Below are positions 5,292-32,423 of a stretch of 64,000 nucleotides of DNA, piece after piece; position 1 is the first letter of the stretch; each line of letters begins with the position of its first letter. The position numbers were made by a program, and so were the translations under genes. Source of the stretch: Acidovorax sp. A79 (GTDB lineage: Bacteria; Pseudomonadota; Gammaproteobacteria; Burkholderiales; Burkholderiaceae_C); contig NZ_AP028672.1 in assembly GCF_041154505.1 (NCBI RefSeq), positions 4,132,501 to 4,196,500 of the forward strand. Direction: 5' to 3'. The notes beneath the pieces are model-generated. The model worked only from the letters and a program-made list of their open reading frames with translations. It was not told the DNA's origin and did not search any database.

Positions 5292-6218
5292 TCAGTAGGC
5301 CGAGGCTTGCCCGAGGGAATAGCGCGCGACGACACCGTCGAGCGCTCTAAGTACCGCCGCAATCGCCGGCCGTCGGAACGTCCCTTGAGCCATTGCAACG
5401 AAGATGCGTCGCGACATATACGGGCTCACCGGGACAACGCTGAAGGCGGTATCCAGACTCGCTCCGCGCAGGGCGAGCGCTGGAAGAACGGTTATCACGT
5501 AGCCCGTCCGCACCATGGCCAGAGTGGCAGCCATGTTCCGGCAGCTGGCCACTACGTTGGGAGTGAATCCAGCGTCATGGCACACGTTGACTATCTGCGC
5601 TTTGTAGGTCTGCGCATTTCTGTTGATTGCCCATCGCTCCCCGGAAAGCTCGGGTACAGTGATGGAACTCCGTCCGGCAAACGGATGACGCGCCGACATC
5701 ACCACCGCGAAGTGGTCTTCATAGACGGGGCGGAAGTACAGCATGCTGGAAAGCGCCTCTGCGCTGATGGAGTCATCGACCAATGCCAGGTCAATCTGCC
5801 TTGAAGCTGCTGCCTTCAAGCTCTCACCTGGTTCAAGCTCTTCGAACCGCAGGTCAAGCGATGGGTACTCCCCAACCAGCTCCTCAATAACCGCGGGGAT
5901 GAAGGTTGTCGCGACGGACCCGAACGCGGATATCCGCACCTCCCCCGAGACGGCCCCCTTCGCAGATGCCAGGTCGCTCTCGATTTCATCGACCATGGCC
6001 AAAACTTTGGACGCGCGGGCAACCAAATTTTGACCCGCGAGCGTGAGTCGCACACCGCGACCTGAACGCTCAAACAGCACGACACCAGTCTCCTGCTCCA
6101 GGATGGCCAGCTGCTGCGACACCGCTGGCCTGGTCAGCTTCACAGCGTCAGCAACCTTGGCAATGGTCCCAAGTACCGCGAGTTCGCTCAACAGATGGAG
6201 ACGGGAGAGATTCAGCAC
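5292..6218 (-). CDS. LysR-family transcriptional regulator of the amino-acid-type operon
   Basis: A 308-residue LysR regulator: HTH at residues 3-60 (LHLLSELAVLGTIAKVADAV, TRPAVSQQLAILEQETG) and a C-terminal effector-binding domain. It starts at GTG 6218; the nearby ATG at 6220 is out of frame and hits a stop at once. It is divergent from the large operon beginning at 6461, and two CCCTA/TAGGG inverted repeats lie in the 240-bp gap. Control of the downstream dehydrogenase, cyclase-like and transporter genes is the natural reading; the inducer should be the transported compound or a breakdown product (inference). Confidence 0.9.
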   Translation of the reverse strand: MLNLSRLHLLSELAVLGTIAKVADAVKLTRPAVSQQLAILEQETGVVLFERSGRGVRLTLAGQNLVARASKVLAMVDEIESDLASAKGAVSGEVRISAFGSVATTFIPAVIEELVGEYPSLDLRFEELEPGESLKAAASRQIDLALVDDSISAEALSSMLYFRPVYEDHFAVVMSARHPFAGRSSITVPELSGERWAINRNAQTYKAQIVNVCHDAGFTPNVVASCRNMAATLAMVRTGYVITVLPALALRGASLDTAFSVVPVSPYMSRRIFVAMAQGTFRRPAIAAVLRALDGVVARYSLGQASAY

Positions 6219-6237: not shown

Positions 6238-6293
6238 CCCTACAACCTAGGGAAAACCCGTAATGTATTTTCGATTTTCTAGGGTTTACCCTA
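6238..6293. promoter_or_regulatory. Two inverted repeats CCCTA/TAGGG, probable LysR sites
   Basis: CCCTACAACCTAGGG at 6238-6252 and TAGGGTTTACCCTA at 6280-6293 use the same pentamer in opposite arrangement (CCCTA-N5-TAGGG, then TAGGG-N4-CCCTA), about 40 bp centre to centre, in an AT-rich stretch between the LysR gene and the operon start. Two sites about four helix turns apart match the recognition plus activation-site layout of LysR promoters. Binding is inferred from sequence only. Confidence 0.6.
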
Positions 6294-6460
6294 TTTTTTC
6301 ACAGGGGGCGTGTTTGCATGCAATTCCTAGGCCAGCTTTATGACGCCAAGTTGGTGCAAACGAACAAAGGAAAGAAAGTCTAACCGTTCCCGTTAGCATC
6401 AGTCGTCTTATCTTGCGAGCCTTGCACTTCTAAAGTCTGCCCATCTAAACAGGAGTGCAG

Positions 6461-7348
6461 ATGAAGGACTTAGCATTTATTGGTGTCGGAAAGATGGGGG
6501 CGCAGATGGCGGCCCGCCTCGTAGCCGCAGGTTTCAACGTCAAAGTGTTTGACCCCAACCAAGCCGCGGTGCAGGAACTGGTACAGAAGGGTGCTGTCGC
6601 AGCCGACAGCCCCAAGTCCGCAGCCGCTGGCGCGGACATCGTGATGTTCAGCTTGCCCACCCCTGCCATCCTCCGCAACGCGGTGTCTGGCGCGGATGGT
6701 GCACTCGCATCCGCAAAAAAAGGCGCGGTACTGGTCGACTTCAGCACCGTCGACCCTGAGACCACGAAAGCGCTTGCAGCGGATGCCGCCGCAAAGGGCG
6801 CGGAATTTCTGGACTCCCCCGTCAGCGGTGGCGTCGCCGGCGCTACGAACGGCAAGCTGGTGCTAATGGTGGGTGGCGATGCCGCCGCCCTAGAGCGAAT
6901 CACCCCCGTGCTGAACAACCTAGCCGGCCGAATCGTGCACTGCGGTGGCATCGGCGCTGGGCAACTCACCAAGCTGGCACACAACATGGTGGTCGCCATC
7001 AACACGATGGCATTGGGCGAAGTTCTCACCGCCAGTGTTAAGGCAGGGGGCAACCTGGAAGTGCTCTGCGACGTCATGACAGCAGGCATGGCCGGCAGCA
7101 AGATGCTCGACTGGTTCCAGAAGACCCTCTTCACAGCAGACCGTCCAGCGTACTTCGCCATTGACCTGATGAACAAGGACATCGGGCTCTGCCTGGATGA
7201 GTTCTCGAACTACTCGATGCCGCTCAGCCAGCTCGTCAAGCAGTCCTACAACGCTGCCCGTGCCAAGGGCCTCGGCGGCAAGGACTCCACCAGTATCTGC
7301 GAGCTCTATGAAGAGCTGCTTCACGTCCGACTCCAGGCTGCAGCCTGA
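6461..7348 (+). CDS. 3-hydroxyisobutyrate dehydrogenase-family NAD(P) oxidoreductase
   Basis: A 295-residue beta-hydroxyacid dehydrogenase. The Rossmann motif GVGKMGAQMA starts at residue 7, the substrate loop DSPVSGGVAGA is near 118, and the catalytic-lysine segment GQLTKLAHNMV is near 168, all as in HIBADH, tartronate semialdehyde reductase and glyoxylate reductase. AGGAG at 6451-6455 points to ATG 6461; a GTG at 6455 lies within the ribosome site. It opens an operon in which the next gene is an aldehyde dehydrogenase, so the two may oxidise a hydroxyacid to a semialdehyde and then to an acid. The exact hydroxyacid is not evident. Confidence 0.9.
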   Translation: MKDLAFIGVGKMGAQMAARLVAAGFNVKVFDPNQAAVQELVQKGAVAADSPKSAAAGADIVMFSLPTPAILRNAVSGADGALASAKKGAVLVDFSTVDPETTKALAADAAAKGAEFLDSPVSGGVAGATNGKLVLMVGGDAAALERITPVLNNLAGRIVHCGGIGAGQLTKLAHNMVVAINTMALGEVLTASVKAGGNLEVLCDVMTAGMAGSKMLDWFQKTLFTADRPAYFAIDLMNKDIGLCLDEFSNYSMPLSQLVKQSYNAARAKGLGGKDSTSICELYEELLHVRLQAAA

Positions 7349-7380
7349 GCGACTTGCCAATCCAACGAACAGAGGTCTTT

Positions 7381-8880
7381 GTGAGCAATCAAACCAAACC
7401 TATCTACGGCTCCGTGAGCCTTCCCAATGAAGGCCTGGCCGGCAACCTCATCAACGGCAAGTGGGTCGCGCCAATTGGCGGCAAGAAGCTGACCGTCGTG
7501 AACCCATGCCGCTTGGACGCAATCGCCGATGTCGGCGCTGCAGATTCTCGCGACATCGATGCAGCCGTAGCTGCTGCAAAAGCTGCCTTCCCGAAATGGC
7601 GACGCAAGGCTGCGCGTGAGCGCGGCGCAATGCTCATCGAACTAGGTAACCGCATCACCGCGAACGCTGATGAGATTGCAAAAATTCTCGCGGCCGAGAC
7701 GGGCAACGCCTTGCGTACGCAGAGCCGTCCGGAAGTTGCAAGCACCGCCGAAGTTCTGCGCTACTACGGTGGAGTGATTGCTGAACAGAAGGGTGAAACG
7801 CTTCCTCTGGGTCCTGGTCTGTTCAGCTACACAACACGCGAACCGTTCGGCGTGGTGGGGGCCATCATTCCCTGGAACTCGCCTCTGGTGCTAGCTGCCG
7901 TAAAAATCGGCATGTCTCTCGGCACTGGCAACACGCTCGTACTCAAACCAGCCGAAGACGCACCTCTTGCAGTCATCCGCATTGCAGAGCTCGCAGCTGA
8001 CATCTTCCCTCCTGGCGTTTTCAACGTCGTGACCGGAGAAGGCCTGGCCGCAGGTGCACCTCTCAGCCAGCACGCTGATGTGGCGAAGGTCTCGTTCACC
8101 GGCTCGCACGAAGTCGGCCAGAAGGTCGCCCACGCCGTTGCCGACCGCATCGGGCACTTGACGCTCGAACTGGGTGGCAAGAGCCCTTGCATTGTCTACC
8201 CCGACGTGGCCACTGACGCCATGCTGGACACGACGGTGAACAACATCATTGCGGCCATGCGCTTCGCCCGCCAGGGTCAGTCGTGCACCGCTGGCTCCCG
8301 CCTGTTCATCCACGAGTCGGTCTGGAGCAAGGTCATGCCGCGCCTCGTCGAGAAGGTCAACGCCTTAAAGGTTGGCGATGCACTGGATGAAACCAGCGAT
8401 ATCGGCGCAGTCATCAACTCCGAGCGCTACACCGCCGTCTGTGGCTTCATCAAGGAAGCCATCGACGCCGGCGCCAAGGTGGAAACCGGCAAGCTGCCCC
8501 CTGACGTCAAGGACGCCAAGGGCTATTTCCCTACACCGGTCATCTTCAGCGGAGTGGACAACACCTGGCGCATCGCTAAGGAAGAGGTCTTTGGTCCCGT
8601 TTTGGTCGCTATCCCATGGACTGACGAAGCCGAAGTTCTGGAAATGGCCAACGACACCCACTACGGCCTGGCTGCCTATGTCTTCACGCATGACATCAAC
8701 GCAGCGATGCGCGCGACGGAGGCGCTGGATGCTGGCTGGATTCAGGTGAATCGTGCCGGTGGCCAGATTCCCGGTATGTCCTACGGCGGCGCCAAGCAAA
8801 GCGGCATTGGTGCCGAGTACTCCATCGAGGGTGCTCTGGAAAGCTACACCAGCCGCAAGAGCGTGACCTTCGGCCTCTGA
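7381..8880 (+). CDS. NAD(P)-dependent aldehyde dehydrogenase
   Basis: A 499-residue member of the ALDH superfamily with all core elements: PWNSPLVLAAVKIGMSLGTG near 160, the general-base segment LTLELGGKSP near 260, the catalytic cysteine in RQGQSCTAGSR near 296 and the EEVFGPV motif near 395. GTG 7381 is preceded by AGAGG; a longer in-frame ATG at 7354 adds unlike residues and has no site. It follows the hydroxyacid dehydrogenase by 32 bp and precedes the DUF4392 gene by 11 bp. It probably oxidises the semialdehyde formed in this pathway; the substrate is inferred from context only. Confidence 0.9.
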   Translation: MSNQTKPIYGSVSLPNEGLAGNLINGKWVAPIGGKKLTVVNPCRLDAIADVGAADSRDIDAAVAAAKAAFPKWRRKAARERGAMLIELGNRITANADEIAKILAAETGNALRTQSRPEVASTAEVLRYYGGVIAEQKGETLPLGPGLFSYTTREPFGVVGAIIPWNSPLVLAAVKIGMSLGTGNTLVLKPAEDAPLAVIRIAELAADIFPPGVFNVVTGEGLAAGAPLSQHADVAKVSFTGSHEVGQKVAHAVADRIGHLTLELGGKSPCIVYPDVATDAMLDTTVNNIIAAMRFARQGQSCTAGSRLFIHESVWSKVMPRLVEKVNALKVGDALDETSDIGAVINSERYTAVCGFIKEAIDAGAKVETGKLPPDVKDAKGYFPTPVIFSGVDNTWRIAKEEVFGPVLVAIPWTDEAEVLEMANDTHYGLAAYVFTHDINAAMRATEALDAGWIQVNRAGGQIPGMSYGGAKQSGIGAEYSIEGALESYTSRKSVTFGL

Positions 8881-8891: not shown

Positions 8892-9971
8892 GTGAACCAC
8901 ATCTCTACATCGCCCCAGCACTGGGCAAACACGCTGACGGCGGAACAAGTCGAGTCCGGAAACCGAATCGACCGACTGATGTCGCTTGAGATTCGTCCGC
9001 TATCCGGTGGGCTGCCGCCGGGCATCGTTGTGCCGATGTACGAGGTGTGCCGCGCCCATCATGGCGGCCCTCTGTCCATGGCAGCTGCGGCCGCGCTCAA
9101 GGACCGGGTGACAACCGGCAGTACCGTCATCATCGCCACGGGCGCTGGCGTCGCGCCAAAGCTACCGCTGGGCGAGACGGATGGGCCCGTGGGCGCAGCG
9201 GCCTTGGCTGCAGCCATCGTGAAGGGAATGGGTGCACGCGTCGTGTTCGCGACCGAAGACGCGCACCTTGCGCCCGTTCTCGCCGCAGTCGAACTCATCA
9301 ACGCGAAGCTGGCGGACTGGGCGGAACGCAACCCAGGTCGAATCGTCACGCCCATAACCGTAGAGACGTTCCCCCTCGGTCTGAATCTTGGCCAGACCAG
9401 GTCACGCCAACTCATCGAAGAACTCAACCCGAGCGCTGTGATTTTTGTGGAGCGCGACGGCCCCAACGTGGAAGGCCAGTTCCACGGTGTGCGTGGCGAC
9501 TGCAGGGACCCGCTGAACGTTGGGTACGTGTACTTGCTTGCGTACCACGCAGCGGAGGCCGGCATTCTCACAGTTGGAATCGGAGATGGGGGCAATGAGG
9601 TGGGGTTTGGCGCTGTCAGGGAATCCATCCGGGACGTGCTCCCCTTGCGTGGCCGCTCCCTGGCCGGCCACGAGTCTGGTGTGGTCACCGTGGTTGCCAC
9701 TGACGTAACTGTAAGCGCGGCCGTTTCCAACTGGGGCGCAGTGTCAGTTGCTGCGGCTCTCTCGGTTCTCCTGGCGGACTCAGACCTGCTTCACGACGCG
9801 GACACTGAACACGAGCTGATTGCCGTCACTGTTGCCGCTGGTGCGCGAGACGGCGCAACGTCCAAACGCTCCATGGTCGTCGATGGCATTGGGTTCGAGG
9901 GCCACCTCGCCTTCGTGTCCCTTCTCCGTGCCGTCGCAGAAATCTCCATTCGCACCGCTGCAAAGCAGTGA
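8892..9971 (+). CDS. DUF4392 protein, D-glutamate-cyclase-like (paralogue A)
   Basis: A 359-residue protein of the DUF4392 family, whose characterised member is the C-terminal domain of mammalian D-glutamate cyclase (D-Glu to 5-oxo-D-proline). Family hallmarks visible here: TVIIATGAGVAPKLPLGETDGP near residue 77, VERDGPN near 190, the glycine-rich GIGDGGNEVGFGA near 232 and VSNWGAVSVAAAL near 280. Start is GTG 8892 with GGAG 7 bp upstream. A second DUF4392 gene follows two genes later with the same motifs, and a PLP enzyme lies between them. Whether this protein is a cyclase, a lyase or a partner subunit cannot be told. Confidence 0.82.
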   Translation: MNHISTSPQHWANTLTAEQVESGNRIDRLMSLEIRPLSGGLPPGIVVPMYEVCRAHHGGPLSMAAAAALKDRVTTGSTVIIATGAGVAPKLPLGETDGPVGAAALAAAIVKGMGARVVFATEDAHLAPVLAAVELINAKLADWAERNPGRIVTPITVETFPLGLNLGQTRSRQLIEELNPSAVIFVERDGPNVEGQFHGVRGDCRDPLNVGYVYLLAYHAAEAGILTVGIGDGGNEVGFGAVRESIRDVLPLRGRSLAGHESGVVTVVATDVTVSAAVSNWGAVSVAAALSVLLADSDLLHDADTEHELIAVTVAAGARDGATSKRSMVVDGIGFEGHLAFVSLLRAVAEISIRTAAKQ

Positions 9972-9985
9972 CCAAGGCAATTTGA

Positions 9986-11269
9986 ATGACTACAAAGAAG
10001 ACCACCGATTCCTTCGGCAACCCGCTCGACCCTATCGTCGGCTTTGCACGCGGAAACATCATCAAGTCTAGCGTGGACGAGGCCCGGCGGCTGAAAAACG
10101 GTCAGACGATTGCCGCCGAGCGCTTGCGTCGGCTGGGACCTGATTCCATCGGGGTGTTCACAGGCAACCAGCGGGAATTCCCTTTGAAGGTCGAGGACCT
10201 GAATACCCACTGCGAAGAGTGGGTAGGTCCAGGCCTGTTCGCCGAAGAACTACGCACTGCGGCCATCGCACACATGGGCGGCCAGTCCGGCGATGGCGTG
10301 GCCGTTGTGAATCGTACCAGTGCCGGCATCATCGCAACCATCGCAGCGCTGGCCTCAGGAAAGGGTGTTGTGTCTGTGGTGCCACCTGGTGGCCGCTCTC
10401 ATGCATCAGTCATCCGGGGCAGCGGTATTGCCCAGGTGCCCTTACATGAAGTCCAGGGCGACAAGGACTGGGCTTCGGTGATTGAAGAGCAAACGCCAGC
10501 TCTGGTGGTCATCACGACCGTAACGAGCAGCCTGGAGTTTCTGAGCGATGACGCTGCGATGGATGTTGTCGCAGTCGCCAAAAGAGCCGGAGCACTGGTT
10601 CTCTGCGATGAGGCCTACGGTGCGCGCATGCGGCCGGTCCTGCGCGGCGGCCTGCCCAGCCTGCAACTCGGGGGAGACCTGTCCATCACCAACTGCGACA
10701 AGGCCGGCCTCTCAGGTCCGCGCTCAGGCCTGCTGGTCGGGCGACCCTCGTTGGTCACTCGGGTCTCTGCTAAGGCGTCTGAATTCGGCATGGAAGCAAG
10801 GGCACCTATCGCGGCCAGCGCCCTGCGCTCCCTTCAGCGCTTCTCGCCAAAAGACCTACTCGATGAGGCCCAGAGCGGACAGGCGCTCGGCAAGGCGTTG
10901 CAGAACGCGATGGGAGCAGACTTGGTCGAGGTCAGTGACCTGGGTCCAATGATTGAAGAAGACCTCGCGATGAAGGAGGTGTTCCGACGCGCGGGCAGGC
11001 CAACTGAAGGAAGTGGCATCGCGCCCGCCGAAATCACCTCAGCCATCGGCGCGGTGCTGCTGCGCGACCACGGAATCCTAACAGTCAATACCCATGGTCA
11101 GCCAGGCGCTCGCGTCTCAGTACGCCTGAAACCAACCCACGGAGCCATCGAAAAGGTTGGTGGAATGGAACGGGTCGTTGATGCGATGCAAGCGTCCTTC
11201 GACTCAGTTGCCCGCCTGGTACACGCACCTGCTGAACTCGCACAGCTGATTCTCGGGGAAACGAAATGA
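9986..11269 (+). CDS. SelA/DgaE-like fold-type I PLP-dependent enzyme
   Basis: A 427-residue PLP enzyme of the branch containing selenocysteine synthase SelA and D-glucosaminate-6-phosphate ammonia-lyase DgaE. Features: VVNRTSAGIIATIAALASG near 108 (phosphate-binding region), VLCDEAYGARM near 205 (Asp contacting the pyridine nitrogen), and NCDKAGLSGPRSGLLVG near 233, whose Lys fits the Schiff-base lysine. No tRNA or selenium genes are near, so SelA function is unlikely. The gene sits between two DUF4392 genes and overlaps the second by 4 bp (ATGA), implying a coupled step. An ammonia-lyase, racemase or aldolase reaction on an amino acid is plausible (inference). Confidence 0.8.
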   Translation: MTTKKTTDSFGNPLDPIVGFARGNIIKSSVDEARRLKNGQTIAAERLRRLGPDSIGVFTGNQREFPLKVEDLNTHCEEWVGPGLFAEELRTAAIAHMGGQSGDGVAVVNRTSAGIIATIAALASGKGVVSVVPPGGRSHASVIRGSGIAQVPLHEVQGDKDWASVIEEQTPALVVITTVTSSLEFLSDDAAMDVVAVAKRAGALVLCDEAYGARMRPVLRGGLPSLQLGGDLSITNCDKAGLSGPRSGLLVGRPSLVTRVSAKASEFGMEARAPIAASALRSLQRFSPKDLLDEAQSGQALGKALQNAMGADLVEVSDLGPMIEEDLAMKEVFRRAGRPTEGSGIAPAEITSAIGAVLLRDHGILTVNTHGQPGARVSVRLKPTHGAIEKVGGMERVVDAMQASFDSVARLVHAPAELAQLILGETK

Positions 11270-12261
11270 GCAAAGATGCCAAGCTGATTTCCGCAATCGA
11301 TGAACGCCTGGACAAACTGGTAAGTCTGGACTTGGGCGGTCGCGGCGTTGAGCAACTGTACGAAGCCGCCAGGTCGCGCCAAGGTACCAGCCTCATCGGT
11401 GCAGCTGCGGACTCTCTACTGGACGTACCAGATGGGGCAACCATCTTTGTGACCACTGGTTCCGTCTCGCGTGCATGGATTTCAACCGAAATCGGCGAAA
11501 ACGATGGTCCAGCGGGTGCCGCTGCTGTGATTCGCGCGCTTGCAATCGCAAAGCGCGTTCACTGCGTGCTGATTGCCGAGGAGACTCTCCTTCCAGGAAT
11601 GAAGGCCATCCTCACGAGCGCAGGACTCTCGGTGCTGCCATTCGACCAGGCCCAGATTGCCGCCAAGGATGGCAGCTTGGCGATTGCCTCCCTGCTGCCC
11701 TTCACGACGAGGGACGACAAAGCGAAGTCCGAAGCGGCCAGGCTCCTTGACCAATACCAGCCCTCGCTGTTCTTCTCGACGGAGCGCGTTGGCCGGGCGC
11801 GTGACGGCATCTACTACAGCATGCGTGCTATCGACTATGGGATGGGACGCTCCCGAATTGACATCCTCTTTGAAGAGGCACAGGTTCGGGGCGTGCGCAC
11901 TGTCGCCGTTGGCGATGGTGGCAACGAAATCGGCATGGGCTCAATCACACAGGCAGTTGCCGACCATGTGAAGTTCGGCCCAACCATTGCTGCGGTCACT
12001 CCATCGGACGTTCTCGTGACGGCTGCCTGCTCGAACTGGGGGTGCAACGCGATTGCCGCCGCAATGGCTGCAAGGCGCTCGGACGCTCGACTGCTCCACA
12101 CCCCCGAAATGGAGCGCCAGTTGCTCAATCGTGGCGTAGACATCGGCCTCATCAACTCGGTTCAGAACGTCGTTGATGCCAACGTCGACGGCCTTCCATT
12201 GGAGACGCACGTTGCGTTCTCAGAAATGCTGCGAACAGTCGTTCGCCCAGCCCTTGCATAA
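11266..12261 (+). CDS. DUF4392 protein, D-glutamate-cyclase-like (paralogue B)
   Basis: A 331-residue DUF4392 protein, paralogous to the product of the gene at 8892: it shares EIGENDGPAGAAAVIRAL, VERVGRARDG-like spacing before the GDGGNEIGMGS loop near 215, and ACSNWGCNAIAAAMAA near 260. It lacks the 30-residue N-terminal extension of its paralogue. ATG 11266 overlaps the stop of the PLP gene, so both are translated together. Two diverged DUF4392 copies in one operon suggest either two consecutive reactions or a hetero-oligomer. It ends 44 bp before the first binding-protein gene. Confidence 0.82.
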   Translation: MSKDAKLISAIDERLDKLVSLDLGGRGVEQLYEAARSRQGTSLIGAAADSLLDVPDGATIFVTTGSVSRAWISTEIGENDGPAGAAAVIRALAIAKRVHCVLIAEETLLPGMKAILTSAGLSVLPFDQAQIAAKDGSLAIASLLPFTTRDDKAKSEAARLLDQYQPSLFFSTERVGRARDGIYYSMRAIDYGMGRSRIDILFEEAQVRGVRTVAVGDGGNEIGMGSITQAVADHVKFGPTIAAVTPSDVLVTAACSNWGCNAIAAAMAARRSDARLLHTPEMERQLLNRGVDIGLINSVQNVVDANVDGLPLETHVAFSEMLRTVVRPALA

Positions 12262-12305: not shown

Positions 12306-13139
12306 ATGCGCAACGTCCTCCCGGCAATTGTTCTTATGGCCGCCAGCCTGTTGGCCGCCGCTTCTGCATCCGCCCAAGATAAGTCCAAGCTCGACGAGGT
12401 GCTGGCGCGCGGCAAAGTCATTGTGGGCGTCAGCAGCGAGTCCCCTCCATTCGGTTTTGTGAACGAGAAGGGGGAGCTAGACGGCTTTGATGTCGATGTT
12501 GCGAAACTGATTGCGAAGGGCCTCTTCGGGAGTGATGACCCCAAGCACATTGAGTTCGTGAAGCAGAGCTCGGCCGCACGCTGGGAGAACGTGAACAGCG
12601 GGAAAGTGGACTTCGGCATCCATGTCGCAACTATCCTGCCAGACCGCGTCGCGCGGGTCGCCTTCACGCGCGGCTACATCGACTCTTCCATCGTCGTCAT
12701 CGTGAAGGCGGACTCCAAGTTCAAGACCTTCGCAGACTTGAACAACGACAAGGTCGCCACCGCCATCCTATCGACTCCCATCCAAGCAGACCGCGCCAAG
12801 CAATTCTTCCCCAAGGCTAAGACCACCACCCTGGATTCGATTGGCGCCCAGTTCACCGCAGTCAAAGGCGGTCGCGTTGACGCTGCTCAGCTCGACGAGC
12901 CGGTGGCTCTCTGGTACGCCTCGCAGAACAAGGATGTTCGCATCTTGCCCGAGCGCATGGCAGCCATCACTAACAACGCCATCTACATGAAGCAAGGTGA
13001 CTTCAAGTGGTGGCTCACCCTGGACACCTATGTGAGCGAGTTGCGCGGTGGCTCGATGTACAAAGACTACTCCGCCAGCTACTCGAAGTGGTTCGGCAAG
13101 GCTCCGCTGAACGCGAAGTACTACGCCCCGTCGAAGTAA
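12306..13139 (+). CDS. Polar amino-acid ABC transporter, periplasmic binding protein (system 1)
   Basis: A 277-residue binding protein of the HisJ/GlnH family (SBP_bac_3). Residues 1-24 are a signal peptide ending ASA; the mature part begins KLDEVLARGKVIVGVSSESPP, the usual first strand, and continues with GELDGFDVDVAKLIAKGL and LPDRVARVAFTRGYIDSS. It heads the first of two complete transporters in this operon; its permeases and ATPase follow directly. It should deliver an amino acid or a close analogue to the pathway enzymes upstream. Substrate not readable from sequence. Confidence 0.9.
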   Translation: MRNVLPAIVLMAASLLAAASASAQDKSKLDEVLARGKVIVGVSSESPPFGFVNEKGELDGFDVDVAKLIAKGLFGSDDPKHIEFVKQSSAARWENVNSGKVDFGIHVATILPDRVARVAFTRGYIDSSIVVIVKADSKFKTFADLNNDKVATAILSTPIQADRAKQFFPKAKTTTLDSIGAQFTAVKGGRVDAAQLDEPVALWYASQNKDVRILPERMAAITNNAIYMKQGDFKWWLTLDTYVSELRGGSMYKDYSASYSKWFGKAPLNAKYYAPSK

Positions 13140-13165
13140 TTGACCATCTGAACGGAAGGCGAGTG

Positions 13166-13819
13166 ATGACTTGGCTCAGCGTGGTGGCTGCCTGGCTACC
13201 GCAGTTCTTCGACGGCTTCCTTGTGACGCTTGCTCTCGTGGCAATGTGTCTTCCGGCGGCCATCGTGCTCGGCATGATTTTGGTTCTGGCACGCCTATCT
13301 TCACGCGCCTTTGTGTGGGGGCCCGTGTATGGGCTCATCGAGTTCCTTCGCAATGTCCCCACTTTCCTGCTCATCCTGGTCGCTTACTACGGGATGCCGT
13401 TGCTGGGATGGCGCCTCGACGGCCTGTACTGCGCCGCGATGGCCATTGCCATCCAGCACACGGCGTACATCGCGGAGGTGCTGCGCGGCGGTGTGGGAGC
13501 AGTCCCGCGTACCCAATGGGATGCAGGGCGTGCAATTGGACTGAAGCCAGCAGGTGTTTTCTATCGGGTCGTTCTGCCCCAAGCCGCGCTGAAAGTGGTT
13601 CCCGCACTAGGCAACCAGGTCGTGGTTCTCATCAAGGACACATCGCTGGTCGCGGGCATTGGTGTAGTGGACCTCACGCTCAGCGGAAAGCTTTTGATGG
13701 AACGAACTGCTGCTTCATATGAAGTGTTTGTGGTCGTCGCTGCCTTCTATCTGATTCTCACAACCCTAACCAGTGCCCTCTTCGTGTGGCTTGAGGCAAT
13801 CGCGCGCAAGCGTCGTTGA
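13166..13819 (+). CDS. Amino-acid ABC transporter permease 1 (system 1)
   Basis: A 217-residue HisMQ-type permease with about five membrane helices and the EAA loop that contacts the ATPase (DAGRAIGLKPAGVFYRVVLPQA, residues about 115-136). ATG 13166 has GGAAGG 6 bp upstream; the frame is open further upstream into the binding-protein gene but that part is not conserved. Only 6 bp separate it from the second permease, with which it should form a heterodimer. Confidence 0.9.
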   Translation: MTWLSVVAAWLPQFFDGFLVTLALVAMCLPAAIVLGMILVLARLSSRAFVWGPVYGLIEFLRNVPTFLLILVAYYGMPLLGWRLDGLYCAAMAIAIQHTAYIAEVLRGGVGAVPRTQWDAGRAIGLKPAGVFYRVVLPQAALKVVPALGNQVVVLIKDTSLVAGIGVVDLTLSGKLLMERTAASYEVFVVVAAFYLILTTLTSALFVWLEAIARKRR

Positions 13820-13825
13820 GCGACT

Positions 13826-14467
13826 ATGGACATAGCATTCCTGAATCTTGGCTACTTGCTGAAGGCCGCGCTCGTCACAGTCGAGATTGCTGCAGCAACG
13901 GTTGGCCTCAGTTTTATCGTGGGCACCGGGCTGGGTGTGTTGGCTGCACTCGGCGGTCGCGTGACTCGTGCCGTGCTGGCCACTTACGTTTTCCTGACCC
14001 GGGGCATCCCGGTCCTGGTGCTCATCTTCATCGCTTACTTCTGTCTTCCGAAGCTTGGTGTAGATGCACCCAACTACGTGGCGGCGACCATCGCGTTGGT
14101 TTTGTACTTCTCGGCCTTCGTAGCCGACATCGTCCGGGGTTCCATCCTCGCCGTTCCCAGGACGACCGTCGAAGCCGGCATGTCAATCGGGCTCAAGAAG
14201 TACCAGATTCTTTGGCAGATACAGCTGCCGCTTGGGATGCGGCTTGCGCTTCCCCCACTGGTGACGACGGCATCCATCGCAGTCAAAAGCACCTCATACG
14301 CTTCCATTGTCGGCGTCTGGGAACTGACCTACGCATCCCGCGAGGTGGTGGAGAGAACTCTGGCCGCCTTTGAAATATTCACCGCCGTGATGCTCATCTA
14401 TTTCTGCATCTGCTACCCCATCTCGCTTGCAGCCACCGTCCTGCAGCGCCGTCTAAAGACATTCTGA
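13826..14467 (+). CDS. Amino-acid ABC transporter permease 2 (system 1)
   Basis: A 213-residue HisMQ-type permease; hydrophobic segments at about 10-35, 55-80, 85-105 and 180-205, and an EAA loop [20 protein letters not shown]. Paired with the permease just upstream, and followed 10 bp later by the ATPase gene. Together with genes 12306, 13166 and 14478 it completes one importer. Confidence 0.9.
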
Positions 14468-14477
14468 AAGAGCCACG

Positions 14478-15284
14478 ATGAGTCCCATCAGCAACATCCG
14501 CCGCAAGATGATTGAAATCAAAGGCGTTTCCAAGTCCTTTGGTGACAACCAGGTGCTTCGCAACATCTCTTTCGATGTGAAAGAGGGAGAGGTCGTCGTG
14601 CTCGTCGGCCCCAGCGGCTCTGGGAAGTCGACGCTGCTTCGCTGCATCAACTTCCTTGAGGAGTTTCAGTCGGGACAAATCCTAGTCGACGGTGAACCAG
14701 TGGGATACGAGTCATCCCAGTCGGCGAAGGGCCGCGTGCGGAAGTCCGAGTCCGATATTGCACGTTTGCGCACCACTGCGGGAATGGTATTTCAGAACTA
14801 CAACCTGTTCCCTCACAAGACAGCCATCCAGAATGTGATGATGGGCCCGGTCCTTGTCAATGGCGAGGACAAGGAGGCTGCGCGCAAACACGGTCTCGAA
14901 CTGCTTGCAAAGGTCGGCCTGGCTGACCGCGCGAACCACCTCCCGTCCCAACTGTCTGGCGGCCAGCAGCAACGTGTAGCTATCGCACGGGCTCTTGCCA
15001 TGCGTCCAAAGGTAATGCTCTTTGACGAGGTCACGTCTGCCCTGGACCCTGAACTCGTAGATGAGGTTCTCAAGACGCTGAAGAACCTCAGCGCCGATGG
15101 AATGACGATGGTCGTCGTGACGCACGAGATGCAGTTCGCCCGGGATGTCGCCGACAGGCTCTTGTTCTTCTACCAAGGAGAAATCATCGAGGACGGTCCA
15201 CCTGCAGATGTGTTTGCAAATCCCAAGACCGAGCGCTTCCAGGCATTCGCCAAGCGCTACCAGTCCACCGCTCAAAGCGCATAG
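14478..15284 (+). CDS. Amino-acid ABC transporter ATP-binding protein (system 1)
   Basis: A 268-residue GlnQ/HisP-type ATPase: Walker [10 protein letters not shown] near 48, signature LSGGQQQR near 158, Walker [15 protein letters not shown] near 176 and the switch histidine in VVVTHEM near 213. It carries a GlnQ-family insert after strand 2 ([13 protein letters not shown]). It belongs to the first importer; a second ATPase gene follows within 34 bp. Confidence 0.93.
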
Positions 15285-15317
15285 GCCCCTCTGCCGAGCC
15301 AATTTTCGAGCACACAT

Positions 15318-16085
15318 ATGTACGCACAGCCAATCACAACTGCTGCCGAGAAGCCCATTCTCGAAATGAATGATATTCGCCTGTCCTATGGCGAAAACGC
15401 CGTCCTCAAAGGCGTAACTCTGCAGGTGAATCGCGGGGAGGTCGTTGTGATAGTGGGACCGAGCGGCGGGGGAAAGAGCTCTCTCCTGCGATGCGCAAAC
15501 CTGCTTCAACGGATTGATTCGGGGCAAATCCTCTTGGAGGGCCAGGACCTCCTTGGCGGCAGCCTCAATGAGGACAGGGTCCGACAGCAGGTCGGGATGG
15601 TGTTCCAGCACTACTACCTCTTTCCCCACCTCACTGTGCTCAAGAACTTGACGCTGGCGCCGCGACGCGTTCTTAAAGAATCCAGCTCGGTCGCTGAGGC
15701 CCGCGCAATGGACCTTCTGAAGAAAGTTGGTCTCTCTGACAAGGTGGGGAACTACCCGGACCAACTCTCCGGCGGTCAGCAGCAACGGGTAGCCATCGCA
15801 CGGGCATTGATGATGCAACCGCATGTGATGCTATTTGACGAAGCGACATCAGCTTTGGACCCCGAGCTGGTGGGCGAGGTTCTTGCCGTGATGAAGGACC
15901 TGGCCCAGTCGGGGATGACCATGCTTGTCGTAACGCATGAGATGGGATTCGCGCGAGAAGTAGGTGACCGGCTTGTGCTGATGGCAGGCGGAAACATCGT
16001 GGAGGAAGGTCCTCCTGCAGAGGTTCTCGACCGTCCGAAGCACGACCGGACGAAGCAGTTTCTTTCGCGAATGACCAAGCACTGA
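15318..16085 (+). CDS. Amino-acid ABC transporter ATP-binding protein (system 2)
   Basis: A 255-residue GlnQ-type ATPase with Walker [10 protein letters not shown] near 50, signature LSGGQQQR, Walker [15 protein letters not shown] and VVTHEM. It is clearly diverged from the ATPase just upstream, so the two are not a recent duplication. It opens the second importer: ATPase, binding protein, two permeases, a different gene order from the first. Confidence 0.93.
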
Positions 16086-16127
16086 TTGGTGCTCCGACTC
16101 TCCCTCCAGAACCACTGAGCTCATCAA

Positions 16128-17000
16128 ATGAAAACTATCGTCTCGGCGTCCATCGTCGCACTTTGCGCGCTCTCTTCCGTCCACACCCAGGCTGCGGCTC
16201 CAAAGGTCGACGTTCCCCTGCCGCCAGAGGTGAAGGCCGCTGGATTTCTGACGGTCGGCATCAACTGCACATACCCGCCGGCTGGCTACGTGGGCATCGA
16301 TGGAAAACCTGCCGGGTACGAGTACACCATGGTCAAGCGTGTTGCCGAGGCGGCGTTCGGCAGCGGCGATGGGCTGAAGACGCAATGCGTGAACGACAGC
16401 AACCGCATTCCCTTCCTGCAATCAGGAAAGATTGACCTCATCCTCGCCTCCCTCGCATTCACGCCTGCTCGCGCCGAGCAGCTGGACTATTCCTCGCCCA
16501 TCTGGGTCAGCAATCTCCAGCTGATTGTTCCCAAGGATTCCAAAGTCGCAGACTACGGAGACTTGGCTGGGAAGACTGTGGTCACGCCAACAGGGAGCAC
16601 GTATCAAACCTGGCTGCAGAAGTGCTACCCCCAAGCCAATCTGGTCACCGTTCAGACCGCCGCTGAAGGCTCGACCATGCTGTCTCAGGGGCGAACAGAT
16701 GCTTTCGCGTACATCGATGTCTATGGATTCAACTACGCGCAGATGCAGAAGAACTACAAGGTTGTTGGAACGCTGGCTGCGTCGGCCATCCAAGGCATCG
16801 GGGTGCGCAAAGGCAACAAGCCGATGCTGGACTGGGTGAATGCAGTGATTGAGCAGATGCGCCAGGAAGACGCATTCTTCAAGGCGTTCAGTCAAGAAGT
16901 GAAGGACCCAACCTTCGTTGCCAAGTACCGCAACATCGTGCCCGGGCCCACCACCCAACTCGACTATGCCAAGAGTGGCGCTTTGGACTGCCTGAAATAA
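16128..17000 (+). CDS. Polar amino-acid ABC transporter, periplasmic binding protein (system 2)
   Basis: A 290-residue SBP_bac_3 protein with a signal peptide (residues 1-22, ending TQA) and the core GFLTVGINCTYPPAGYVGI, DSNRIPFLQSGKIDLILASL and TPARAEQLDYSSPI. It differs strongly from the first binding protein, so the two importers probably take up different, related compounds. A perfect 10-bp hairpin follows its stop codon by 14 bp, of the kind that protects binding-protein mRNA. Confidence 0.9.
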   Translation: MKTIVSASIVALCALSSVHTQAAAPKVDVPLPPEVKAAGFLTVGINCTYPPAGYVGIDGKPAGYEYTMVKRVAEAAFGSGDGLKTQCVNDSNRIPFLQSGKIDLILASLAFTPARAEQLDYSSPIWVSNLQLIVPKDSKVADYGDLAGKTVVTPTGSTYQTWLQKCYPQANLVTVQTAAEGSTMLSQGRTDAFAYIDVYGFNYAQMQKNYKVVGTLAASAIQGIGVRKGNKPMLDWVNAVIEQMRQEDAFFKAFSQEVKDPTFVAKYRNIVPGPTTQLDYAKSGALDCLK

Positions 17001-17014
17001 CACCACGAAAGGCT

Positions 17015-17041
17015 GCTCTCGAAGCGCGTGGCTTCGAGAGC
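17015..17041 (+). other. Intercistronic hairpin after the binding-protein gene
   Basis: GCTCTCGAAG (17015-17024) and CTTCGAGAGC (17032-17041) form a perfect 10-bp stem with a 7-base loop. No run of T follows, so it is not a normal terminator. It lies between the binding-protein stop (17000) and the permease start (17052), and so could raise binding-protein mRNA relative to permease mRNA. Confidence 0.65.
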
Positions 17042-17051
17042 ACGCATCACG

Positions 17052-17714
17052 ATGACATCTTCTCTATTTGGCGACATGCTGTTGTTGCTCGGGGGCCTTG
17101 GACGTACCTTGCTTGTTAGCGCTATTGGCATCGCACTCGGGCTTCTCCTGGGAATGGTGTTTGGTGCGGTGAGGCATGCCCGCATCCCGGTGCTCTCCCA
17201 GTTGATTGGCGTCTACTGCAATTTGTTCCGTTGCACGCCGCTATTGGTACAGGTTGTGATGCTGTACTTCGCCCTTCCCGACATGGGCATCCGACTCACC
17301 CCGTTCGAGACGTCTTGGCTGGCACTCGGACTGTGGGGGGGCGCGTACCACACCGAAATCTTCAGAGCCGGCTATGGGGCGGTGAATCCGAATGAGGTTC
17401 TGGCAGCCCGTGCGCTGGGTATGTCTGCCCCTCGCTCCTTCCTCGATGTGACGGTACCTCTGGGCCTTCGCACTTCAATTCCGTCCGCGACGACGATGGT
17501 CATCACTCAGTTTCGCTCGTCATCTTTCATGATTGCTGTCGGCTACCAGGAGCTCACGTACGTGGCCAATCGGATGGTTGCAGACACATTCAAGGTGTTC
17601 GAGGTGTTCGGTATTGCAGCCCTGGCCTATTTGGTGGTGTCGAGCCTTATCGCAATCGCATCTAGGCGCATCGAACGCATGGTCGCAGTACCTGGATTGG
17701 GAGTCGCGAAATGA
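17052..17714 (+). CDS. Amino-acid ABC transporter permease 1 (system 2)
   Basis: A 220-residue HisMQ-type permease with the EAA loop AARALGMSAPRSFLDVTVPLG and four to five helices. ATG 17052 gives the common short N-terminus (MTSSLFGDMLLLLGG); an in-frame GTG at 17028 lies inside the hairpin. No good ribosome site is visible, so hairpin-linked or coupled initiation is possible. Overlaps the next permease by 4 bp (ATGA). Confidence 0.88.
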   Translation: MTSSLFGDMLLLLGGLGRTLLVSAIGIALGLLLGMVFGAVRHARIPVLSQLIGVYCNLFRCTPLLVQVVMLYFALPDMGIRLTPFETSWLALGLWGGAYHTEIFRAGYGAVNPNEVLAARALGMSAPRSFLDVTVPLGLRTSIPSATTMVITQFRSSSFMIAVGYQELTYVANRMVADTFKVFEVFGIAALAYLVVSSLIAIASRRIERMVAVPGLGVAK

Positions 17715-18375: not shown

Positions 18376-18576
18376 ATGAAATTCCATCTCGGTGACTTCT
18401 ATCCATCCGCAGAGCAGCCCATGCATTCGGCCCCTGCCTGCGCAAACCTGCAGTCTGGAGCTTGTAGAGAGGAGGCTGCAGCCGCTCCTCTTTGCGGCTT
18501 CACCTTTGCAGTAATCCCTCCCGAGCAGGCTGTAGAGGACGAAGTGTCTGGCGTCGCCGTGCTTGGGTACAACTGA
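18376..18576 (+). CDS. Possible small protein after the transporter genes
   Basis: A 66-codon frame begins 2 bp after the permease stop (MKFHLGDFYPSAEQPMHSAP...) and ends 8 bp before the flavoprotein gene. I recognise no family. It fills the gap in the operon exactly and has a plausible start, but nothing else supports it and it may be untranslated leader. Confidence 0.3.
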   Translation: MKFHLGDFYPSAEQPMHSAPACANLQSGACREEAAAAPLCGFTFAVIPPEQAVEDEVSGVAVLGYN

Positions 18577-18584
18577 GTAGCACC

Positions 18585-19937
18585 ATGTTGAGCACTGTCC
18601 AGAAGAGCCCGTCGTCCTCGGACACCAATGGCACCTCAGGCGTCAGACGACATCGGGTTGTGATTGTTGGTGGTGGGGCCGCAGGCATGGAGCTCGCCAC
18701 CGGGCTTGGTCGCAATACCGCCTTTGCGGTCACGCTGGTCGACAAGGCAAGAACCCACGTCTGGAAGCCGAAACTACATGAGATTGCCGCTGGAAGTATG
18801 GACGTAGGCCGTCATGAAGTTGGCTACCTGGCACACGCTCGCCGGCATGGCTACACCTTCCGCGTGGGCGCTTTGGAAAGCGTGGACCGAGTGACGAAGA
18901 CCGTCTCTGTGGCGGCATATGTCGACCAGTTCGGTGAGCAAGTGACCCCAAGCAGGTCGTTCGCGTACGACACGCTGGTGGTTGCAGTCGGCAGCCAGAG
19001 CAATGACTTCGGCACGCCTGGGGTGGGCGCCCACGCGCTACGGCTGGAGTCGCTTGGCGATGCCGTTCGTTTCAACCGAAGGCTAACGAACGCTTGCTTC
19101 AGAGCACAGTCACAAAGTGGCCCCCTGGGCGCGGCTCAACTTCGCATTTGCATCATTGGCGCAGGCGCAACCGGTGTCGAGTTAGCGGCGGAGTTGCACA
19201 GTGCGGGACAGGAGATTTTTGGCGAGGCAGCCATCGACAGTAAGTCCCCAAAGCTAGACATCCATCTGGTTGAAGCTGCTGAGCGAATTCTGCCTGCGCT
19301 TTCGCCGAAGGTCTCTGCGGCTGCGGAACACCTCCTACTCGTGAAAGGGGTGAAGGTTCAAAAAGCCTCCCGCGTTCTGGAGATTCGTCCTAGCTCTGTC
19401 GTGTTGGCTGATGGAGGCGAGCTTCACGCTGAACTGATCGTCTGGGCTGCCGGAGTGAAGGCACCTGATGTTCTCAGCGAGTTGTCGGGGCTGCAGTCCA
19501 ATCGAGCGAACCAGCTGGTTGTTCGCCCAACTCTGCAAACGACGCTGGATGAGAACATCTTTGCTATCGGCGACTGCGCAGCCTGTTCGCGAGCCGATGG
19601 GAAGGGCCTCGTACCGCCTAGAGCTCAAGCAGCACATCAGCAGGCGGTCTTTCTTGCCTCCTCGCTTGAAGACCGTGTCGCCGGTAGGCCACTGCCCCAC
19701 TATGAGTACCGAGACTTCGGCTCGTTGATATCGCTTGGCGCGCGTAGCACGGTAGGAACCCTCATGGGTGGGCTCATTGGACGAGGAATGTTTGTCGAGG
19801 GCATGATGGCCAAGGCGATGTACACATCCCTCTACAAGAGTCACGAGATTGCCCTCCATGGATGGAGACGTGTAGGCATGGAGTCTGTTGCGCGTCTGCT
19901 TCTGCCCTCTTCCGGAGCACGTGTGAAACTGCACTGA
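18585..19937 (+). CDS. NDH-2-like NAD(P)/FAD-dependent oxidoreductase
   Basis: A 450-residue type II NADH dehydrogenase-like flavoprotein: first nucleotide site HRVVIVGGGAAGMELATGLG near residue 23, second site CIIGAGATGVELAAELH near 188, the FAD-binding IFAIGDCAAC near 325 and PRAQAAHQQ near 345, all in NDH-2 order. Such enzymes pass electrons from NADH to quinone at the membrane without pumping protons. It may reoxidise NADH made by the operon's two dehydrogenases. ATG 18585 is used; the frame is open back to 18492 without support. Confidence 0.87.
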   Translation: MLSTVQKSPSSSDTNGTSGVRRHRVVIVGGGAAGMELATGLGRNTAFAVTLVDKARTHVWKPKLHEIAAGSMDVGRHEVGYLAHARRHGYTFRVGALESVDRVTKTVSVAAYVDQFGEQVTPSRSFAYDTLVVAVGSQSNDFGTPGVGAHALRLESLGDAVRFNRRLTNACFRAQSQSGPLGAAQLRICIIGAGATGVELAAELHSAGQEIFGEAAIDSKSPKLDIHLVEAAERILPALSPKVSAAAEHLLLVKGVKVQKASRVLEIRPSSVVLADGGELHAELIVWAAGVKAPDVLSELSGLQSNRANQLVVRPTLQTTLDENIFAIGDCAACSRADGKGLVPPRAQAAHQQAVFLASSLEDRVAGRPLPHYEYRDFGSLISLGARSTVGTLMGGLIGRGMFVEGMMAKAMYTSLYKSHEIALHGWRRVGMESVARLLLPSSGARVKLH

Positions 19938-23194: not shown

Positions 23195-23508
23195 ATACGC
23201 GCCCCTTGCACCACCCCATAGTCGACCTGGTACCGCTCAAAGCGGATGCCGACCAGTTCGTCTCTCACCCGCAGATGCTCGGGGTGGTTCGCGTACGCAT
23301 CCAATGCCGCTTGCGACTCGAACTCGCTGTACAGCACGACGTCGCATGCGTAGCCCACCCGGCTCGTGTCGATACCGATCTCCAGATGGATCAAGCCGGG
23401 AATGAGCCCCCTCAATCCATGAAACCCATTGCGCACGAGTTCAATACTGGCCTGCTTTTCCTCAGGGGTGCTACCGCGCACTTTCCACATCACGATGTGA
23501 CGGATCAT
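23191..23508 (-). CDS. Dabb (stress-responsive A/B barrel) domain protein
   Basis: A 105-residue ferredoxin-like fold protein of the Dabb family (MIRHIVMWKVRGSTPEEKQA, HLEIGIDTSR, YSEFESQAALDAYANHPEHL). Members appear in several aromatic-degradation operons, where a helper or isomerase role has been suggested but is not firmly assigned. It is placed between the ring-cleavage dioxygenase and maleylacetate reductase genes and overlaps the latter. Confidence 0.88.
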   Translation of the reverse strand: MIRHIVMWKVRGSTPEEKQASIELVRNGFHGLRGLIPGLIHLEIGIDTSRVGYACDVVLYSEFESQAALDAYANHPEHLRVRDELVGIRFERYQVDYGVVQGARI

Positions 23509-23517
23509 TCCTGCCTC

Positions 23518-24387: not shown

Positions 24388-24405
24388 GATGGCTCGCTTT
24401 GCTGC

Positions 24406-25371: not shown

Positions 25372-25393
25372 TCAAGTCTCCTTGGTGGTGTTG

Positions 25394-28240: not shown

Positions 28241-28255
28241 GGGTGCCTCCTGTCG

Positions 28256-29707: not shown

Positions 29708-29742
29708 GAGTTGTCTCCTGGGTGGTTGGAATGGGAGTTTTG

Positions 29743-32368: not shown

Positions 32369-32423
32369 CCGCATGCATCGCTTCAGTCAGCTCTGTGGCC
32401 CCTTTTCTGGAGAGCTCTCCGCC

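What the first reader, a model, noticed from the sequence alone, without database searches (positions are those of the whole stretch)
8892..12261. DUF4392 - SelA/DgaE-like PLP enzyme - DUF4392 triad: candidate new amino-acid catabolic module
Two diverged D-glutamate-cyclase-like proteins flank a fold-type I PLP enzyme, with 4-bp overlap on one side and 14 bp on the other. No selenocysteine or D-glucosaminate genes are near. Upstream are a hydroxyacid dehydrogenase and an aldehyde dehydrogenase; downstream two amino-acid importers. Seen directly: gene order and motifs. Known: DUF4392 includes D-glutamate cyclase; SelA-like enzymes include ammonia-lyases. Inferred: breakdown of an unusual amino acid (D-form or lactam) through a PLP-dependent elimination or epimerisation.
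Basis: partly seen in the sequence, partly recalled or inferred. Interest (0 to 1): 0.85.

Follow-up and report, generated by a model that had tools for sequence, protein, structure and literature searches.

The report
Orphan-enzyme operon for amino-acid breakdown
A set of genes that probably takes up and breaks down a still unidentified amino acid contains two enzyme families of unknown role side by side; the same pair is found together in very different bacteria, which gives a practical way to learn what these enzymes, one of them related to a human protein, really do.

Summary
The triad is real: DUF4392-A (8892-9971), a PLP enzyme (9986-11269), DUF4392-B (11266-12261). The PLP enzyme is not SelA: TIGR00474 finds nothing in the genome; its nearest solved relative is the orphan MJ0158. 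The neighbourhood is conserved: of 43 PLP genes in 42 loci, 40 have DUF4392-B directly behind, and the same 18 plasmids hold both, though each family is rare (1 and 3 of 369 class genomes, own included). A and B keep all six metal ligands and form separate clades. Upstream enzymes swap: 25 loci have a beta-hydroxyacid dehydrogenase, 11 an omega-aminotransferase, 1 both, before one ALDH. Rhodobacterales-type loci add demethylation-type genes. A remote DUF4392 lies with DUF1445 and 5-oxoprolinase genes in two genomes, favouring lactam/D-glutamate-type chemistry. Best reading: a mobile catabolic module that oxidises a terminal CH2OH or CH2NH2 of an imported amino acid and passes the amino-dicarboxylate to the PLP/DUF4392-B pair. 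Substrate and reaction are unknown; the paper searches made found nothing on the system.

The parts
5292..6218 (-). LysR-type regulator, divergent to the operon
   Evidence: PF03466/PF00126; LysR of 81-83% identity in the same place in L023-L026; 41-44% in the minimal loci L048, L024 second copy, L058, L060
6280..6293 (.). palindrome TAGGGTTTACCCTA in the LysR/HIBADH gap; candidate operator, weak
   Evidence: sequence; copies with 2-3 of 12 fixed positions different in the gaps of L023-L026, but also 3 differences in L032 and L052; no chance expectation computed
6455..7348 (+). beta-hydroxyacid dehydrogenase of the HIBADH family (ORF start GTG; ATG at 6461 possible)
   Evidence: PF03446+PF14833; nearest solved 3cky 2-(hydroxymethyl)glutarate dehydrogenase 177.8 bits, 1vpd tartronate semialdehyde reductase 176.8 bits
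7354..8880 (+). aldehyde dehydrogenase, specificity unknown
   Evidence: PF00171 488.2 bits; best NCBIfam model BADH 409.3 bits, below cut-off; homologue upstream of 38 of 43 related PLP genes
8892..9971 (+). DUF4392-A (PF14336), subfamily with ERDGPN motif
   Evidence: six metal ligands invariant in 22 of 22 rows; model pLDDT 91.0 matches TON_0340 structures
9986..11269 (+). MJ0158-type fold-I PLP enzyme; Lys239 (NCDK) aligns with the DK lysine of MJ0158, taken as the Schiff-base lysine
   Evidence: K239 and D208 invariant in the 44-row alignment, at most one gap allowed per column
11266..12261 (+). DUF4392-B (PF14336), motif ERVGR(A/N); 4-bp overlap with the PLP gene
   Evidence: six metal ligands invariant in 42 of 42 rows
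12306..14467 (+). importer 1: binding protein 12306-13139, permeases (ORF 13007-13819) and 13826-14467
   Evidence: permeases by synteny with annotated plasmids
14478..16085 (+). two ABC ATPases, 14478-15284 and 15318-16085, presumably one for each importer
   Evidence: ORFs; homologues in the same order in L023-L026; annotated as amino-acid ABC ATPases in homologous plasmid regions
16128..18373 (+). importer 2: binding protein 16128-17000, permeases 17028-17714 and 17711-18373
   Evidence: nearest solved relatives 2yjp and 1xt8, amino-acid binding proteins by name
18492..19937 (+). NDH/SQR-like FAD oxidoreductase, possible accessory
   Evidence: 61% identical to the protein behind the same importers in L024; related gene near 5 of 43 PLP genes

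Best explanation
This is a horizontally mobile catabolic module for an imported alpha-amino acid. Step 1 (inferred): the acid enters through the ABC importers. Step 2 (inferred from gene swaps): its terminal CH2OH is oxidised by the HIBADH-type enzyme to an aldehyde; Rhodobacterales-type relatives reach the aldehyde from CH2NH2 with an omega-aminotransferase, probably after N-methyl groups are stripped. Step 3 (inferred): the ALDH makes a carboxylate, giving an amino-dicarboxylic acid. Step 4, the conserved core: the MJ0158-type PLP enzyme acts on that acid (a lyase, or an epimerase that sets D configuration), and DUF4392-B, a dimanganese-type enzyme, makes or opens an amide/lactam of a D-glutamate-like intermediate. 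DUF4392-A does a related step on a different compound. Shown: gene content, conservation, intact catalytic and metal residues, interchangeable upstream enzymes. Inferred: direction, substrate class, stereochemistry, reaction type. Likelihoods: catabolic module about 0.85; amino-dicarboxylate at the core about 0.4; D/lactam chemistry about 0.45.
For: DUF4392-B directly behind the PLP gene in 40 of 43, 21 of these with exactly a 4-bp ORF overlap. The 18 plasmids with the PLP gene are the same 18 that have a DUF4392-B of 55% identity or more. Pairwise identities of the two proteins correlate, r 0.92 over 39 loci. Both families rare: 1 and 3 of 369, own genome included. ALDH in 38 of 43; of these 37 have HIBADH (25), omega-aminotransferase (11) or both (1); the last, L049, is cut about 800 bases upstream. 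In L041, L042, L045, L046 and L052 the ALDH ORF overlaps the PLP ORF by 4 bp. The 5 PLP genes without ALDH have a LysR and/or a TctC-type binding protein near them. The window binding proteins are closest to amino-acid binding proteins, for importer 1 after two reconstructed ancestral proteins. Remote DUF4392 genes lie beside PxpB/PxpC and DUF1445 (2 genomes), Asp/Glu racemase or Thr/Ser dehydratase and RidA. Mammalian D-glutamate cyclase contains a DUF4392 domain (passages of PMC5339696). All six metal acids of TON_0340 (passages of PMC5132392) are invariant in A and B.
Against: No substrate is known for any member. The mammalian cyclase activity may belong to the DUF1445 domain, which Pfam itself names D-Glu_cyclase and which is not in this operon; in this genome it lies on the second contig. 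TON_0340 was reported as a weak Mn-dependent phosphatase (passages of PMC5132392). 3 of 43 PLP genes have no DUF4392-B beside them, and a remoter PLP subfamily (about 29% identity) has no DUF4392 in the stretches held for 6 of 6 loci, so the PLP enzyme can work without it. L050 and L051 combine a divergent HIBADH (30-40%) with demethylation-type genes, so the split between front ends is not clean. Of six remote DUF4392 plasmid contexts opened, two give no amino-acid hint beyond an importer or none at all. HIBADH enzymes normally need a beta-hydroxy acid (recalled), which fits only some omega-hydroxy amino acids.
Confidence: 0.5

Rival explanations
1. The PLP enzyme is an aldolase-type lyase: it splits a beta-hydroxy-alpha-amino acid into glycine and an aldehyde, and the ALDH and HIBADH oxidise or reduce that aldehyde. 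DUF4392-A and -B prepare the substrate by opening a lactam or amide.
Against: A shared fold shows no function. Five PLP genes have no ALDH near them. It does not explain why HIBADH and an omega-aminotransferase replace each other.
Confidence: 0.2
2. [quoted passage not shown] the HIBADH and ALDH only widen the range of precursors.
For: A remote DUF4392 lies with DUF1445 and PxpB/PxpC-type genes in 2 genomes, one also with a D-amino-acid-transaminase-like gene; mammalian D-glutamate cyclase; the window's DUF4392-B keeps the loop of those remote proteins better than A does.
Against: No oxoprolinase gene is annotated in the five plasmid regions with the module that I opened; the genome loci were not searched for it. 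D-glutamate is common and would hardly need a rare module with two importers. DUF1445 is absent here.
Confidence: 0.15
3. DUF4392-A and -B are metal-dependent phosphatases or metabolite-repair enzymes and the PLP enzyme a companion; the module degrades a phosphorylated or damaged compound.
For: TON_0340 shows Mn-dependent phosphatase activity, highest on AMP among 20 compounds, kcat/KM 1.9e2 per M per s (passages of PMC5132392).
Against: That activity is called very low by its authors; the operon's importers are of amino-acid type.
Confidence: 0.08

Closest known systems
Mammalian D-glutamate cyclase (9030617O03Rik / C14orf159, DGLUCY)
   Same: Contains a DUF4392 domain (passages of PMC5339696 and PMC5132392)
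   Different: The mammalian protein also has a DUF1445 domain; here two diverged single-domain paralogues flank a PLP gene
TON_0340 of Thermococcus onnurineus (DUF4392; PDB 4dwz, 4fc5, 5gkx, 5gl2-5gl4)
   Same: Same fold and metal site; best scores 114.3 bits for DUF4392-B and 72.9 bits for DUF4392-A
   Different: Studied alone as a weak phosphatase; physiological substrate unknown; A differs in the loop after the third ligand
MJ0158 (TIGR03576/UPF0425; PDB 2aeu)
   Same: Nearest solved relative of the PLP enzyme, 27-28% identity
   Different: No paper found; the window protein scores below the TIGR03576 cut-off and N61, R63, E78 and W79, invariant in its own family, are other residues in the MJ0158 alignment
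[quoted passage not shown]
   Different: Not among the hits shown; no direct comparison made
Ectoine-type DoeD/DoeC pair (aminotransferase III + ALDH; recalled)
   Same: An omega-aminotransferase followed by an ALDH turns a diamino acid into an amino-dicarboxylate, as proposed for the Rhodobacterales variant
   Different: Here followed by the MJ0158-type PLP enzyme and DUF4392-B; no sequence comparison made

Membership tests
SelA (selenocysteine synthase) | match to the SelA model TIGR00474 | tested here: not met
   no match at E <= 0.001 in the whole genome, which includes the window gene; control rings in 4 of 14 genomes, over the cut-off in 1
SelA (selenocysteine synthase) | Sec machinery beside it (selB, selC) | not tested
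   only: no tRNA gene in the window; selD lies elsewhere in the genome
TIGR03576 (MJ0158 family) | curated score cut-off 304.45 bits | tested here: not met
   192.9 bits, E 8.1e-57
MJ0158-like proteins in the wide sense | sequence and fold match to 2aeu with aligned PLP lysine | tested here: met
DgaE / D-glucosaminate-6-P ammonia-lyase | sequence or structure match | tested here: inconclusive
   not listed; no direct alignment made
DUF4392 (PF14336) | score above 27.9 bits | tested here: met
   A 190.7, B 220.4 bits
DUF4392 (PF14336) | six metal-binding acids of TON_0340 | tested here: met
   invariant in 22 of 22 A and 42 of 42 B rows, window included (residues named, placed by the alignment)
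D-glutamate cyclase (mammalian type) | two-domain make-up with DUF1445/PF07286 | tested here: not met
   only PF14336 found in A and B; a PF07286 gene lies on contig C2
D-glutamate cyclase (mammalian type) | conversion of D-glutamate to 5-oxo-D-proline | not testable with these tools
   needs purified protein
Amino-acid catabolic operon | importer, regulator and enzymes conserved together | tested here: met
   importers of this type in only part of the loci (binding protein 1 near 9, binding protein 2 near 6 of 43)

The most novel reading that the evidence does not exclude
The PLP-DUF4392-B pair is a hitherto undescribed two-enzyme core for amino-dicarboxylate (probably D or lactam) catabolism, onto which evolution has bolted exchangeable front ends: hydroxy-acid oxidation in soil and plant bacteria, quaternary-amine demethylation plus transamination in Rhodobacterales. 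The pair holds the key to the physiological substrate of DUF4392, a family that includes the human protein.
Probability: 0.4. Interest if true: 0.8.

Novelty: new variant of a known kind. Interest (0 to 1): 0.62.

Why it matters
Two enzyme families without a settled function, DUF4392 (from archaea to the human protein) and the MJ0158-type PLP enzymes, turn out to be locked together in one operon in dozens of bacteria, in many with importers or binding proteins that can be used to find the compound. That makes an open question (what do these families act on?) testable in a tractable bacterium. Copies on plasmids of Bradyrhizobium and Sinorhizobium, most of them from soybean nodules, and in Rhodobacterales hint at a widespread nitrogen compound that has gone unnoticed; that last step is inference.

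Tried and rejected
Considered and rejected: (1) housekeeping SelA: no TIGR00474 match in the genome. (2) A recent tandem duplication giving A and B: the tree puts the 42 B rows on one side of a branch (100/100) and the 22 A rows on another (70/92), with remoter DUF4392 proteins joining each; many of those outer branches are long, so their places are unsure. (3) The triad as the unit: DUF4392-A stands directly upstream in only 19 of 43 cases; L040 and L043 have it elsewhere in the locus. (4) Class V aminotransferase as an essential part: related genes near 7 (c18) and 11 (c11) of 43, and the best match in this genome is 33% over part of its length. (5) Phage carriage: no match in 50,697 phage records.

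Led nowhere: naming the substrate from binding-protein or HIBADH similarity (3cky and 1vpd are tied). Literature, in a library of open-licence PMC papers only: UPF0425, TIGR03576 or MJ0158, 0 papers; at least 2 of 3 of glutamate cyclase domain-containing / D-glutamate cyclase / oxoproline, 0; at least 3 of 4 gene names, 0; at least 5 of 6 demethylation terms, 0; selenocysteine synthase with rhizobium and ABC transporter, 1 review, listing only; listing only. GC content of the module lies within the range of the window. Sigma-70-like promoters between 6100 and 12400: 0 found, 1.3 expected. In one search SelA and DGL are not among the 50 rows shown, which does not exclude them. Substrate ideas (5-hydroxynorvaline, homoserine, trimethyllysine, 2-hydroxymethylglutarate and others) are recalled chemistry without a test.

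Limits and rows dropped: the scan rests on two exact peptide patterns, so loci are missed; of its 44 loci, L063 and L066 hold only pieces of the PLP gene and are outside the 43 genes counted (L063 has DUF4392-B after the piece). L024 counts twice (two PLP genes). Correlations use only loci with both genes (39, 19, 37, 26, 25) and are not corrected for shared ancestry. What counts as 'present' follows identity and distance limits that I set, with marine-type reference proteins taken from the same loci, and some contigs are short. ORF starts are first possible starts, so overlaps are ORF-level. Alignments A1 and A2 hold 16 and 36 of the 120 proteins listed (444 found among 7996 scored). In the PLP model residues 77-81 and 370-374 are below pLDDT 50. 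L087's match has one in-frame TAG. Several neighbours were named from models below their curated cut-offs: MttB type by TIGR02369 (but above the Pfam cut-off), the flavoproteins, PxpC by NF045499, PxpB by TIGR00370, the D-amino-acid transaminase by TIGR01121.
Full report
OBSERVATION. The window holds, in one direction, a HIBADH-type dehydrogenase (6455-7348), an ALDH (7354-8880), DUF4392-A (8892-9971), a PLP enzyme (9986-11269), DUF4392-B (11266-12261) and two amino-acid-type importers (12306-18373), with a divergent LysR gene (5292-6218). Both DUF4392 genes score far over the Pfam cut-off (190.7 and 220.4 bits against 27.9). In the whole genome (5.87 Mb, 2 contigs) these are the only two PF14336 matches at E <= 0.001.

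CONSERVATION. One pattern-based scan of the 84,980-genome collection gave 44 loci. Of 43 sufficiently complete PLP genes in 42 loci, 40 have DUF4392-B directly downstream on the same strand (21 with exactly a 4-bp ORF overlap) and 19 have DUF4392-A directly upstream. Among 72,556 plasmids the PLP protein hits 18 records. DUF4392-B hits 69; those of 55% identity or more are exactly the same 18 (accession lists compared by eye), and the next falls to 34.9%. In samples drawn evenly, both families are rare, own genome always included: the PLP profile in 1 of 369 class genomes, 7 of 399 order genomes and 1 of 398 phylum genomes, the 6 other order hits belonging to a remoter subfamily; PF14336 in 3 of 369. 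Of 148 genomes of the 'relatives' set (own included), 29 had a match at E <= 0.001: the own gene, one of 29% identity (E 2.0e-33), and 27 weak ones (8.9e-8 or weaker). So the module is an accessory block, probably transferred. Its hosts include Paracidovorax, Variovorax, Paraburkholderia, Pandoraea, Bradyrhizobium, Sinorhizobium, Shinella, Pantoea, a Mycobacterium, Saccharopolyspora and many Rhodobacterales (record titles). MOB-suite typing of the 18 plasmids conjugative. Pairwise identities of PLP and DUF4392-B correlate at r 0.92 over 39 loci, and PLP and ALDH at 0.94 over 37, without correction for shared ancestry.

ARCHITECTURE. tabulates the 43 PLP genes. ALDH precedes 38. In 37 of these there is either the HIBADH-type enzyme (25), a class III omega-aminotransferase (11) or both (L056); the remaining one (L049) is cut about 800 bases upstream. 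The aminotransferase passes the cut-off of a general aminotransferase subfamily (NF004767) and its nearest solved relatives are class III transaminases. The simplest reading is that the two make the same kind of aldehyde for the ALDH, one from CH2OH, the other from CH2NH2. Rhodobacterales-type loci (mostly marine genera, from recall; L053 is an Oceanospirillaceae MAG) add an MttB-type methyltransferase (10 of 43) and DAO/GCV_T flavoproteins of dimethylglycine-dehydrogenase type (13 and 12 of 43), families that strip N-methyl groups (families; the reaction is recalled). Two of these loci (L050, L051) carry a divergent HIBADH and no aminotransferase upstream, so the pairing is not strict. Minimal loci exist: LysR, PLP, DUF4392-B and a TctC-type binding protein (L048 and the second copy in L024); LysR, PLP and TctC (L058); L060 with LysR and L062 with TctC, both without DUF4392-B. 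A remoter PLP subfamily (about 29% identity) has no DUF4392 in the 3-18 kb held for 6 of 6 loci, with a TctC-like gene close by in 4 (L083, L084, L086, L088). Thus the PLP enzyme probably acts on the imported compound or on the ALDH product directly, and DUF4392-B works next to it.

DUF4392-A AND -B. The six metal-binding acids named for TON_0340 (E59, D61, E115, D157, E161, D246; passages of PMC5132392; placed with the alignment) are present in every A (22 of 22) and B (42 of 42) row. A and B are separate groups with different loops: ERDGPN...FHG in the window's A; ERVGR...DGIYYSM in its B, close to the loop of the DUF4392 proteins found beside 5-oxoprolinase genes (ERPGQAADGGYYNM). The DUF4392-A model (pLDDT 91.0) fits TON_0340 structures (TM 0.85 by target length). 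What DUF4392 does by itself is open. The mammalian protein makes 5-oxo-D-proline from D-glutamate (abstract and passages of PMC5339696) but also contains DUF1445. TON_0340 showed a very weak Mn-dependent phosphatase activity (passages).

INDEPENDENT CONTEXTS. In G507 the order on one strand is PF07286, LamB/YcsF (PxpA), PxpB, PxpC, DUF4392 (Pfam, NCBIfam, order). In G412 PxpB, PxpC, PF07286 and, after the DUF4392, a D-amino-acid-transaminase-like gene are present; PxpA was not checked there. PxpC, PxpB and the transaminase are below the curated cut-offs of their equivalog models. On plasmids I opened 6 of the 51 records with only a remote DUF4392: it sits beside Asp/Glu racemase and an aminotransferase, Thr/Ser dehydratase and RidA, a TctCBA importer with oxoprolinase-type genes further upstream, an arylmalonate decarboxylase, an ABC importer, or among chemotaxis genes without a metabolic hint. 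Together these favour amino-acid or lactam chemistry, most simply around D-glutamate-like compounds. In the searches made (open-licence papers only) I found no description of the system; DUF4392 occurs in 2 of the 20 papers listed (31 held one of its terms).

MECHANISM. My best model: import of an alpha-amino acid, terminal oxidation by HIBADH (or aminotransferase) and ALDH to an amino-dicarboxylic acid, then PLP chemistry coupled to metal-dependent amide/lactam chemistry by DUF4392-B. The 4-bp overlaps ALDH-PLP in several loci and PLP-DUF4392-B in 21 of 40 fit sequential steps. Which PLP reaction it is (elimination, epimerisation, retro-aldol) cannot be read from the sequence. Against the model stand the unknown activity of lone DUF4392, the PLP genes that do without it, the loci that mix front ends, and the usual need of HIBADH enzymes for a beta-hydroxy acid (recalled).

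VERDICT. The finding is a new variant of a known kind (an amino-acid catabolic operon) built on two orphan enzyme families. Interest 0.62, because it makes the function of both families testable.

Noticed in passing
22118-40000: A catabolic island rich in TctC-type binding proteins follows: maleylacetate-reductase-like, hydroxyquinol-dioxygenase-like, FAD monooxygenase, two ALDH, ThDP decarboxylase-like, OCD-like and DapA-like genes (names from reading the ORFs, not searched).
   Followed up: no
18492-19937: NDH/SQR-like FAD oxidoreductase directly behind the importers, 61% identical to the one in the same place in Pseudorhodoferax soli.
   Followed up: partly
L024:892-5248: Pseudorhodoferax soli carries a second, minimal copy (LysR, PLP, DUF4392-B, TctC) back to back with the full module.
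   Followed up: partly
L090:8276-12376 and L089:7922-13070: DUF4392 with DUF1445 and 5-oxoprolinase-type genes: the two domains of mammalian D-glutamate cyclase as separate genes in one neighbourhood.
   Followed up: yes
L044-L047, L052, L056, L057, L059, L065: Rhodobacterales loci link an MttB-type methyltransferase and dimethylglycine-dehydrogenase-like flavoproteins to the module; the quaternary amine is unknown.
   Followed up: partly
G000 contig C2:30721-31149: A separate PF07286 (DUF1445) gene lies on the second contig of this genome.
   Followed up: no
6280-6293: Perfect palindrome in the LysR/HIBADH gap, imperfect in four close relatives; chance level not computed.
   Followed up: partly
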